A stretch of 64,000 nucleotides of DNA. Origin: Acidobacteriaceae bacterium TAA 166 (lineage in GTDB: Bacteria > Acidobacteriota > Terriglobia > Terriglobales > Acidobacteriaceae). Under the pieces are notes generated by a model. It saw nothing but the letters and a program-made list of their open reading frames with translations. It made no database searches and had not been told where the DNA came from. The DNA lies in assembly GCA_000421065.1 (NCBI GenBank), contig ATWD01000001.1, positions 3,526,001 through 3,590,000 on the forward strand. Direction: 5' to 3'. Shown piece after piece: positions 43,613 through 45,709 of this stretch; position 1 is the stretch's first letter; each line of letters begins with the position of its first letter. Position numbers and translations under genes: made by a program.

Positions 43613-45709
43613 TTAGTCGCCGGCGACCAGGTCCTTGTCTTCGGACTTGGCTGCGGGAGCGGCCTTGATCTCGCCGAGGGAGATGAAGCCGGGCTGCTCG
43701 GCCTCCTTGAGGATCTCCTTGCGGTAGAGCTTGGCCATCTTGGCGTTCTCGGCGTCCTGCTTGATCTTCGCGTCGCGCGCCCGGATCTTCTCCTCGCGGG
43801 CGTTCTTGGCGATGCCGCTCTTGTCGAAGGTGTCGTTGGCAGCAGAGTTGACGTGAGCCTCGTTGAGGACCAGGTCGTACTTCTCCTGCTTCTCGATTCC
43901 GACCTTCTTACCGCCGGCGAAGATCTCGTGACGGCCGTGCTCCTCGTACCACTTGGTGAGGGTGGCGGTCATGTGCATCTTCTCGATGATGTTGCGCCAG
44001 CCCACGCCGGTGTTGTAGGCGCAGAAGCTGATCTCGCCTTCCTGGGTGGCGTAGGGGATGATGCACTGCTCGGTACGACGGAAGTCGTAGTTGAACAGAT
44101 CCTGGAACCACATGCCGGCGATGAAGAGGAAGTTCCAGCGGTCGGCGCGGCGCTTCTCGATGTCGGCCATGGTGCGGTCGGCGGTCACCTTGCCGTAGTT
44201 CTTGCCGGTGGCTCCGAAGCACTTGTCGAACTTCTGCAGCAGGTCGACGATCTTGAAGTGCGTGGGGGCCTTGGTGGGATCGTAGTTGCGGAGAAGCGCG
44301 AGCGAGACGCCGACGATGGAGAGGAACTTACCACGGGCGGCGTCGTTGACGCGGGCGACGTCCTTGGCGAGCTGCACTGCATCGAGGAAGGCGGTGACGG
44401 GAACGGCTTCCTTGGTCTCCTTGTCGATCATGAGCGCCATGCCGATGCCGCAATTGGGGTGACAGCCGCAGGAGAGCTGGCCCCAGTCGTGATCGGGTCC
44501 GTGAACCAGGTCGGCCCAGTCGGAGAAGGTGGACATGAAGGAGATGGGGAACCAGTCGCGGGTGCTCTCACCGAGGCCGGTCTGGTTGCGGATGTCGTGC
44601 GCGAGATGCGACAGCGTATAACGCTGGGCGGCGCGGCGCTCGTCCGAAACTTCTTCGTCGCGGCCGGTGAAGGACACAGGCTGGAAGGAGAGGAAGTTGA
44701 TTTTCTTCGGATTGTCGAGGGCGAACTCGATGATGCGGCCGACCTGCTCGTTATTGATGCCGTTGACGATGGTGGTGACGGGAACGATGTCGACGCCAGC
44801 CTCGTGCAGGTTATGGATGGCCTGGAGCTTCACGTCGAATGCGTTGCCGACCTTGCGGTGCGAGTTGGCGGCGTTGCCGATGCCGTCGAACTGCAGGTAG
44901 GCGTAGCGGAGACCGGCCTCAGCGGCCGCCTTGGCGAACTCCTTGGACTTGGCGAACTCGATGCCGTTGGTCGCGGCCTGCACGGAGTTGTAACCGACCT
45001 TGCGGGAGTAGGCGACAGCGTCGAGGAAGTAGGGCGAGAGGGTGGGCTCGCCGCCGGAGAACTGCACGCTCATCTGACGACGCGGCTTGATGGTGATGGC
45101 GTTGTCGAGCATGGTCTTGATCTCGTCCCACGTAAGCTCGTGGACGAAGCCGACCTGATTGGCGTCCATGAAGCAGGGATCGCACATCATGTTGCAGCGG
45201 TTGGTGAGGTCGATGGTGAGGACCGAGCCGCGGCCGTGGGTCACGGTGGAGGTGCCGTGGTTGTGGAGCTTCTCGTCGTTGTGGGCGCGGATGTCGCGGC
45301 CGGGGAAGACGTCTTCGAGGTGCTTCATCATCGGCGGATCGATGGACATGACGTCCTCGAAGTGGCCGTGGATGGGGCAGTCCTTAACCATGAGAATCTG
45401 GCCGTCGCGCTCGATGATCTGAGCCTTGATCTCGCCGACCTTCTCGTTGAGAAGGATCTCGTGGGGGAGCTTGCCGTCGACGATCTGCTGGCGGATCTCG
45501 GGGACGCAGCGCGGGCAGAGCGAGTCGGTGGTGCGGGGCCAGCCGAGCGGGGGCTTCTCTTTCTGGTAGGACTTCAGGAGGGGCTTGTCGCTCCACTTGG
45601 GGGTAAAGCTGGGGTTGGGCGAGATCGAGTTCAGTTTGTCGAACACGGCCCATGCGGCCTTCGCTCCATACGTGAGAGCCTTCTCGGCTAACTTCGCGGA
45701 CTTTGCCAT
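43613..45709 (-). CDS. Radical SAM enzyme of the tetraether/membrane-spanning lipid synthase (Tes/Mss) type
   Basis: This protein has 698 residues. The SAM cluster motif is CNMMCDPC (Cys172, Cys176, Cys179), followed by QFSGGEPTLSP. The N-terminal domain carries CPRC (Cys65, Cys68) and CPIHG (Cys111), a third cluster candidate is CGCHPNC (Cys414, 416, 420), and the C-terminal part has TEQCIIPYATQEG followed by FCAYNTGVGWR. This order of Cys motifs is that of archaeal Tes, which joins lipid tails across the membrane, and of bacterial homologues linked to membrane-spanning diabolic acids. Acidobacteriota make iso-diabolic acid, so this gene is a good candidate. The C-terminal 100 residues are Lys/Glu-rich and probably helical. 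It is monocistronic. Confidence 0.78.
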   Translation of the reverse strand: MAKSAKLAEKALTYGAKAAWAVFDKLNSISPNPSFTPKWSDKPLLKSYQKEKPPLGWPRTTDSLCPRCVPEIRQQIVDGKLPHEILLNEKVGEIKAQIIERDGQILMVKDCPIHGHFEDVMSIDPPMMKHLEDVFPGRDIRAHNDEKLHNHGTSTVTHGRGSVLTIDLTNRCNMMCDPCFMDANQVGFVHELTWDEIKTMLDNAITIKPRRQMSVQFSGGEPTLSPYFLDAVAYSRKVGYNSVQAATNGIEFAKSKEFAKAAAEAGLRYAYLQFDGIGNAANSHRKVGNAFDVKLQAIHNLHEAGVDIVPVTTIVNGINNEQVGRIIEFALDNPKKINFLSFQPVSFTGRDEEVSDERRAAQRYTLSHLAHDIRNQTGLGESTRDWFPISFMSTFSDWADLVHGPDHDWGQLSCGCHPNCGIGMALMIDKETKEAVPVTAFLDAVQLAKDVARVNDAARGKFLSIVGVSLALLRNYDPTKAPTHFKIVDLLQKFDKCFGATGKNYGKVTADRTMADIEKRRADRWNFLFIAGMWFQDLFNYDFRRTEQCIIPYATQEGEISFCAYNTGVGWRNIIEKMHMTATLTKWYEEHGRHEIFAGGKKVGIEKQEKYDLVLNEAHVNSAANDTFDKSGIAKNAREEKIRARDAKIKQDAENAKMAKLYRKEILKEAEQPGFISLGEIKAAPAAKSEDKDLVAGD

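What the first reader, a model, noticed from the sequence alone, without database searches (positions are those of the whole stretch)
43613..45709. Candidate enzyme for membrane-spanning lipids (Tes/Mss-like)
The protein has the full order of Cys motifs known for archaeal tetraether synthase: N-terminal CPxC and CPxHG, radical SAM CxxxCxxC, CGCxxxxC and a C-terminal C...FCAYN-GVGWR region. Acidobacteriota are known producers of iso-diabolic acid and suspected sources of branched GDGT lipids. It stands alone, with no lipid gene beside it.
Basis: partly seen in the sequence, partly recalled or inferred. Interest (0 to 1): 0.65.

Follow-up and report, generated by a model that had tools for sequence, protein, structure and literature searches.

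The report
Likely acidobacterial membrane-spanning lipid synthase
A soil bacterium carries one copy of an enzyme related to the archaeal enzyme that welds lipid tails together; it lacks one of that enzyme's four metal sites and is a strong candidate for making iso-diabolic acid, a membrane-spanning fatty acid linked to a widely used climate proxy.

Summary
The ORF is real: 698 aa, minus strand, 43613-45709, with a ribosome-binding site at 45722-45726. It is a radical SAM protein whose closest characterised relative is archaeal tetraether synthase (Tes): PDB 7tol E=1e-59; predicted fold Z 29.6 over 469 residues, next fold 17.6. It is not a Tes equivalog (315 bits, cut-off 450). All 46 clade members in the tree, and all 80 proteins from named records (partly the same genomes), keep Tes's rubredoxin site, SAM cluster and C-terminal cluster ligands, plus Met439 and Tyr459 equivalents. 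None has the three Cys of the N-terminal auxiliary [4Fe-4S], so "full order of Cys motifs" is slightly wrong. The clade occurs in 139 of 297 Acidobacteriota genomes, Tes in 32, both in 13. In one family they occupy the same locus in different genera. Edaphobacter modestus DSM 18101, whose fatty acids are 30.4% iso-diabolic acid (PMC11354219), has one 98% identical copy and no Tes above cut-off. Best reading: it couples two iso-C15 chains tail to tail. Activity is untested, and I had no Mss sequence to compare. Zeng et al. 2022 already reported an Edaphobacter Tes homologue; the clade, lost cluster, locus swap and an associated second radical SAM protein did not appear in what I read.

The parts
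43613..45709 (-). CDS, 698 aa radical SAM protein of the 'long' Tes-related clade
45722..45726 (-). AGGAG ribosome-binding site, 12 nt before the ATG
   Evidence: sequence
45623..45706 (-). N-terminal amphipathic helix, residues 2-29; proposed membrane docking
   Evidence: helix in AF2 model; hydrophobic moment of residues 2-26 is 0.36-0.57 against shuffle means of 0.16-0.21; at most 2% of shuffles reach it in 14 of 16 rows
45506..45517 (-). rubredoxin-site half 1, C65-x2-C68
   Evidence: 46/46; 80/80
45368..45379 (-). rubredoxin-site half 2, C111-x2-H114
   Evidence: 46/46; 80/80
45230..45268 (-). place of the lost N-terminal auxiliary [4Fe-4S] (residues 148-160); no Cys
   Evidence: 0 of 80 have any Cys in residues 125-165
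45173..45196 (-). radical SAM motif C172-x3-C176-x2-C179
44450..44470 (-). C414-G-C416-HPN-C420; C420 aligns with Cys338 of MJ0619 (C-terminal cluster)
44021..44113 (-). C-terminal cluster segment M533 ... C549, Y553, C563 (Tes M439, C455, Y459, C470)
43616..43942 (-). C-terminal extension, residues 590-698, less conserved, partly helical

Best explanation
It is the carbon-carbon coupling enzyme for the membrane-spanning lipids of this acidobacterium. Proposed steps: the N-terminal amphipathic helix docks it on the inner membrane; two lipids each feed an iso-C15 chain into a Tes-like hydrophobic pocket; the radical SAM cluster makes a 5'-deoxyadenosyl radical that abstracts H from one chain end; the carbon radical is parked on a sulfur of the C-terminal [4Fe-4S] cluster; a second SAM makes the second radical, and the C-C bond forms. 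The product would be iso-diabolic acid chains (13,16-dimethyl octacosanedioic acid), in this host mainly ester-bound. Shown here: family, fold, conserved and lost metal ligands, distribution, locus exchange with Tes, and a matched lipid phenotype (from a paper) in one near-identical strain. Inferred: the reaction, substrate, cluster intermediate and membrane docking, by analogy with M. jannaschii Tes.
For: Sequence and fold: NCBIfam Tes is the best family; 7tol E=1e-59; Foldseek 7tom first, 2.1e-28 against 4.8e-8 for the next fold; VIA-align Z 29.6, 469 of 498 residues. Catalytic site: SAM and C-cluster ligands, M439 and Y459 equivalents in 46/46 and 80/80, whereas each C-cluster Cys column is not Cys in 7 of 8 TrsS-like rows. 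Phenotype: E. modestus DSM 18101 (locus L122, 98% identical) makes 30.4% iso-diabolic acid (PMC11354219 Table 1, passages) and has one long protein and no match over the Tes cut-off; 16 of 16 genomes have one full-length long protein of 308-333 bits and none over the cut-off (weaker second hits in G358, G033, G352, G351). Exchangeability: in family f2 the long gene lies between ftsA and Nramp in 4 of 4 long genomes; Tes lies beside ftsA at that place in 3 of 6 Tes genomes (Nramp 0.2, 1.8 and 4.9 kb beyond); none of 14 f2 genomes has both. In f1 the two lie close together in 3 loci, 246 bp apart in L074. Zeng et al. found one Tes homologue in brGDGT-producing E. aggregans (PMC8941075 passages).
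Against: Below the Tes cut-off (315 of 450 bits). Long stem branch (2.1), and 20 of 91 Tes-invariant columns have another majority residue, several beside the C-cluster: substrate or reaction may have shifted. One auxiliary cluster is missing. No lipid gene adjoins it in the window. 13 of 297 genomes have both it and Tes, so the two are not always interchangeable. Other acidobacteria may use Tes instead: Koribacter, reported with a 42% Tes homologue, makes iso-diabolic tetraesters (passages); S. usitatus makes brGDGT without iso-diabolic acid (passages). 47 of 139 long-bearing genomes lack the associated radical SAM protein. I could not name genomes that lack the gene, so there is no phenotype-negative control; only one strain was matched exactly to lipid data.
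Confidence: 0.72

Rival explanations
1. It acts on ether lipids as a bacterial tetraether synthase, so its true product is branched GDGT rather than ester-bound iso-diabolic acid.
For: Tes kinship. brGDGT is made by E. aggregans, reported to have one Tes homologue (passages). The near relative G033 carries a DUF2229 match, a domain I recall as part of the ether-forming PlsA/Ger.
Against: 8 of 10 genomes searched have no DUF2229 match: the host, E. modestus, Granulicella aggregans, G. paludicola, G. rosea, Acidipila rosea, G203 and G181; matches in G033 and G066 only. Other ether routes were not tested. No iso-diabolic ethers were detected in the Edaphobacter strains of PMC11354219 (passages).
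Confidence: 0.12
2. Neofunctionalised relative: it keeps the Tes scaffold but performs another radical reaction on lipid tails (for example desaturation, thiolation or methylation), and a different enzyme makes iso-diabolic acid.
For: Long stem, lost cluster and changed residues beside the C-cluster. Six other host radical SAM proteins have no family above cut-off. Coexistence with Tes in 13 of 297 genomes.
Against: The ligands proposed to hold the substrate radical are kept in 46/46 and 80/80. Locus exchange with Tes. None of the 10 other host radical SAM proteins scanned has Tes as its best family.
Confidence: 0.13
3. It is an acidobacterial Mss orthologue of the Thermotoga type, already covered by the 2022 Mss discovery.
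For: Same class of product; AEM 2026 says Mss models share the catalytic architecture of Tes (PMC13274423 passages).
Against: Not testable here: no Mss sequence on hand. The Black Sea study counts Tes and Mss homologues in Acidobacteriota separately (17 and 11 of 97 MAGs; PMC11868695 passages).
Confidence: 0.1

Closest known systems
Tetraether synthase Tes / GDGT-MAS (MJ0619, PDB 7tol/7tom; NCBIfam NF045702)
   Same: Whole-chain fold, rubredoxin site, radical SAM cluster, C-terminal [4Fe-4S] ligands, Met439 and Tyr459 equivalents
   Different: No Cys for the N-terminal auxiliary [4Fe-4S]; extra N-terminal region with a helix and a C-terminal extension; 315 of 450 bits; 28-29% identity in the structural alignment
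Acidobacterial Tes-like proteins (the 32 of 297 genomes over the Tes cut-off; Koribacter and Solibacter homologues probably of this type, by their reported 42% and 40% identity)
   Same: Same phylum; adjacent to or at the same locus as the long gene in some genomes
   Different: Shorter, all four metal sites; 28-36% identical to the target
Mss, bacterial membrane-spanning lipid synthase (Thermotoga maritima)
   Same: Proposed reaction: tail-to-tail coupling of fatty acyl chains
   Different: Sequence relation not tested
TrsS (NF045646) and TrsS-like class 3 proteins of Acidobacteriota
   Same: Radical SAM core, rubredoxin site
   Different: Target scores 209 of 490 bits; class 3 keeps the N-cluster Cys in 8 of 8 rows and lacks each C-cluster Cys in 7 of 8, the opposite pattern

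Membership tests
Tes (NF045702 equivalog) | score over the curated cut-off of 450 bits | tested here: not met
   315.1 bits; long clade 308-348 bits for full matches listed, lower for divergent or split rows
Tes (NF045702 equivalog) | rubredoxin site C9-x2-C12 ... C33-x2-H36 | tested here: met
   C65, C68, C111, H114; 46/46 and 80/80
Tes (NF045702 equivalog) | N-terminal auxiliary [4Fe-4S], C73/C77/C80 and His | tested here: not met
   gap, H151, S154 at the three Cys columns in 46/46; His83 column is His in 1/46; no Cys in residues 125-165 in 80/80
Tes (NF045702 equivalog) | radical SAM CX3CX2C | tested here: met
   C172, C176, C179
Tes (NF045702 equivalog) | C-terminal [4Fe-4S] Cys set plus Met439, and Tyr459 | tested here: met
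   C420, C549, C563, M533, Y553 in 46/46 and 80/80. That the three Cys are the cluster ligands is my reading of the conserved columns; cofactor binding itself not tested
Tes (NF045702 equivalog) | Tes fold over the whole catalytic chain | tested here: met
   Z 29.6, rmsd 3.6, 469 of 498 residues; model pTM 0.80, pLDDT 74.4, under 50 around ligand segments 171-189 and much of 545-588
Tes (NF045702 equivalog) | C(sp3)-C(sp3) coupling of lipid tails | not testable with these tools
   needs in vitro or in vivo lipid analysis
Mss | orthology to T. maritima Mss (published screen: E<=1e-30, >30% identity) | not tested
   no Mss sequence available; paper not held
TrsS (NF045646) | score over the curated cut-off of 490 bits | tested here: not met
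   209.2 bits

The most novel reading that the evidence does not exclude
This clade is a separate class of lipid-coupling radical SAM enzyme, the acidobacterial iso-diabolic acid synthase, that does Tes chemistry with three metal sites instead of four. In many lineages it works with a second, unassigned SPASM-like radical SAM protein: that protein is in 95 of 297 genomes, 92 of which carry the long gene, and lies about 50-370 bp upstream on the same strand in 7 genomes of 5 families, forming a two-enzyme module for membrane-spanning lipids.
Probability: 0.3. Interest if true: 0.82.

Novelty: new variant of a known kind. Interest (0 to 1): 0.62.

Why it matters
Iso-diabolic acid makes up about 12-49% of the fatty acids of the cultured strains tabulated in two papers (passages) and is seen as a likely precursor of branched GDGTs, the basis of soil and lake palaeothermometers (passages). 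Passages read here call the acidobacterial coupling enzyme unknown or unconfirmed. A single-copy gene in a cultured strain makes the question testable by one knockout. If the enzyme works without the N-terminal auxiliary cluster, it also shows what that cluster is not needed for; its role in Tes was called unclear.

Tried and rejected
No operon conserved across the lineages compared: of the gene clusters, only the f2 ftsA-Nramp locus, the f1 Tes neighbourhood and the partner radical SAM protein were of use. Promoter scan: none found; the two terminator-like sites are at chance level. Rejected labels: MoaA, NirJ, AhbC/D, PqqE (about 80 bits or less, far under their cut-offs); TrsS. Class 3 proteins (about 470 aa) were considered as possible Mss and set aside: four scanned score best or nearly best with TrsS and the class mostly lacks the C-cluster Cys. 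PF06050 (HGD-D) was tried as an ether-enzyme marker but did not ring in the T. maritima control, so it is uninformative; PF09989 did ring there. The link of PF09989 to PlsA/Ger is recalled, not looked up. The partner protein's fold search gives generic SPASM/twitch enzymes (BlsE Z 18.0, SkfB 17.1; 7tom 13.4) and no function. The Fisher test of co-occurrence (2e-37, before the correction below) ignores relatedness and is not used as a probability.

Corrections made on checking: one search counted G268 as Tes-only; one search shows a split long protein there (pieces of 49% and 55% identity at contig ends), so the counts became long 139, both 13, Tes only 19, neither 139, and long without partner 47.

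Rows dropped before counts: the tree (89 rows) left out proteins under 440 aa, duplicates, L001, L047, L048, L065, L066, L097 and all but 6 of the near-identical same-genus loci L003-L021; the 46-row count is the long rows of that tree, target included. The 80-row check used the 80 loci; a protein of L226 (41% identity, C-cluster Cys lost) scored under 500 bits and was left out.

Full report
OBSERVATION. The ORF lies at 43613-45709 on the minus strand (698 aa, ATG) with AGGAG at 45722-45726. Pfam finds Radical_SAM (7.8e-19) and the HMPTM zinc ribbon (1.3e-12). The best NCBIfam family is Tes, 7.1e-94, but 315 bits against a cut-off of 450. The best PDB sequence is 7tol, M. jannaschii Tes, E=1e-59.

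METAL SITES. I aligned 89 proteins: 46 of the target's clade (target included), 34 Tes-like (4 of them the sister group), 8 TrsS-like and MJ0619. The target's clade keeps the rubredoxin ligands, CX3CX2C, the C-terminal Cys (C338, C455, C470 of MJ0619), Met439 and Tyr459 in 46 of 46 rows. [quoted passage not shown] the His83 column is His in 1 of 46. All four are kept in 30/30 Tes-like, 4/4 sister and 8/8 TrsS-like rows. According to passages of Lloyd et al. (PMC9433317), an intermediate is bonded to a sulfur of one [4Fe-4S] cluster, taken to be the C-terminal one, and the role of the remaining cofactors is unclear. So the proposed catalytic pair is intact and an auxiliary site is gone.

FOLD. 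AlphaFold2 on a 16-row alignment: pLDDT 74.4, pTM 0.80. Confidence is low (under 50) at residues 144-153, 171-189 and much of 545-588, which include ligand segments. Foldseek puts 7tom and 7tol first (2.1e-28, 4.7e-27), then MoaA (4.8e-8). VIA-align 2: Z 29.6, 469 residues, 3.6 A; next fold Z 17.6. Residues 2-29 form a helix with no counterpart in MJ0619, whose first rubredoxin Cys is residue 9. Its hydrophobic moment exceeds the shuffle mean in 16 of 16 rows, and at most 2% of shuffles reach it in 14 of 16.

TREE. The clade is monophyletic (SH-aLRT 100) on a long stem (2.1), nested among acidobacterial Tes-like proteins with f13/f58 members nearest. The method was quick, there is one archaeal row, and the program warns of long-branch joins, so the exact sister is unsure.

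DISTRIBUTION. Among the 61 genomes I count the long protein in 50 (four as fragments or split copies), Tes only in 6, neither in 5 (four of these under 90% complete). Among 297 Acidobacteriota genomes at least 90% complete: long 139, Tes over cut-off 32, both 13, neither 139 (corrected by 82). In family f2 (14 genomes), 4 have long, 6 have Tes, none both, 4 neither. Long lies between ftsA and an Nramp transporter in 4 of 4. Tes lies beside ftsA at that place in 3 of 6, all of genus g2, with Nramp 0.2, 1.8 and 4.9 kb beyond; in the other 3 it lies elsewhere. FtsA and Nramp were checked by Pfam in L033; FtsQ, MurC and MurG are my labels. In L074 (family f1) long and Tes are 246 bp apart on one strand; in L072 and L073 one opposite-strand ORF lies between them. 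An ancestral tandem pair with differential loss, or replacement in place, would both suggest overlapping function.

PHENOTYPE. Locus L122 is Edaphobacter modestus DSM 18101, 98% identical. Table 1 of PMC11354219 (passages) gives iso-diabolic acid as 30.4% of its fatty acids, and 26.4% in E. aggregans DSM 19364. The E. modestus genome and 15 others (14 from named records, plus the unnamed near relative G033) each hold one full-length long protein and none over the Tes cut-off (16 of 16). Weaker second hits occur in G358 (Acidicapsa, a 639-aa diverged paralogue without the C-cluster Cys), G033, G352 and G351. Chloracidobacterium has iso-diabolic acid and two chromosomes (PMC12816986 passages); genomes G143, G165 and G203 (two contigs, 3.7 Mb), which I infer to be that genus, carry the long protein. 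Against a simple rule: Koribacter, with a 42% Tes homologue, makes iso-diabolic tetraesters, and S. usitatus makes brGDGT without iso-diabolic acid (passages). No named negative strain could be tested.

HOST INVENTORY. The host has 20 radical SAM matches, the target among them. I scanned 10 others against NCBIfam: HpnJ, PqqE, HpnH and a UDG-linked protein are over their cut-offs; L207, L211, L214, L216, L217 and L218 are not. The other nine were not scanned; from their first residues I read MoaA, MiaB, RimO, HemW, LipA, RlmN, QueE and two menaquinone-type enzymes (L209, L213). DUF2229, recalled as part of PlsA/Ger, has no match in 8 of 10 genomes searched, the host and E. modestus included, but matches in G033 and G066, so the likely product here is ester-bound.

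PARTNER. L207 (353 aa; Cys 55, 59, 62 and 263, 281, 310, 314, 318 invariant in 14 rows) is in 95 of 297 genomes, 92 of them with the long gene; G117, G172 and G256 have it without the long gene, and 47 long genomes lack it. It lies directly upstream, same strand, about 50-370 bp away, in 7 genomes of 5 families (f19, f67, f73, f83, f87). In the host the two genes are about 580 kb apart. Its fold is SPASM/twitch-like. Function unknown; possibly a second step in the same lipid pathway.

KNOWN. Zeng et al. 2022 (PMC8941075 passages) listed 456 bacterial Tes homologues, including one in E. aggregans (32% identity) and those of Koribacter and Solibacter, and proposed a role in brGDGT. Halamka et al. 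(PMC10087280 passages) describe the iso-diabolic acid enzyme as still unknown. AEM 2026 (PMC13274423 passages) treats Mss and Ger as the bacterial enzymes. My searches (listings, plus passages of the papers named here) showed no paper that describes the cluster loss, the clade, the locus exchange or the partner. The Mss paper was not held, supplements were not read, and no paper was read whole, so prior description is possible.

VERDICT. A Tes-related radical SAM protein of a distinct clade with three predicted metal sites, most likely the iso-diabolic acid synthase of Edaphobacter and its relatives. It works like Tes by the catalytic evidence available, but it should not be filed as Tes.

Noticed in passing
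host genome G000:C1:2987396-2988454 (locus L207:1357-2415, +); not in the window: Unassigned 353-aa SPASM-like radical SAM protein, co-distributed with the long gene (92 of its 95 genomes) and directly upstream of it in 7 genomes of 5 families.
   Followed up: yes
L226 (Acidicapsa dinghuensis, G358:C9:128038-129459): Diverged paralogue (41% identity) that keeps the radical SAM and rubredoxin motifs but has lost the C-cluster Cys: a natural variant, neofunctional or decaying.
   Followed up: partly
family f29 genomes, e.g. G181 (L077, L078) and G240 (L075, L076): Many carry two long-clade proteins, one about 68% and one about 53% identical to the target.
   Followed up: no
L040 (G033:C83:18065-19075): Truncated second copy (open frame 402 aa, 45% identity) in a close relative that also has a DUF2229 match.
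   Followed up: no
host loci L204 and L214: Two HpnJ-type B12 radical SAM proteins, one over the cut-off (750 bits), one under (357 bits): a possible unassigned hopanoid or lipid enzyme.
   Followed up: no
L033, L034, L035, L225 (long) and L037, L039, L224 (Tes): The long or Tes gene sits beside ftsA in family f2, a possible tie between lipid coupling and cell division.
   Followed up: partly
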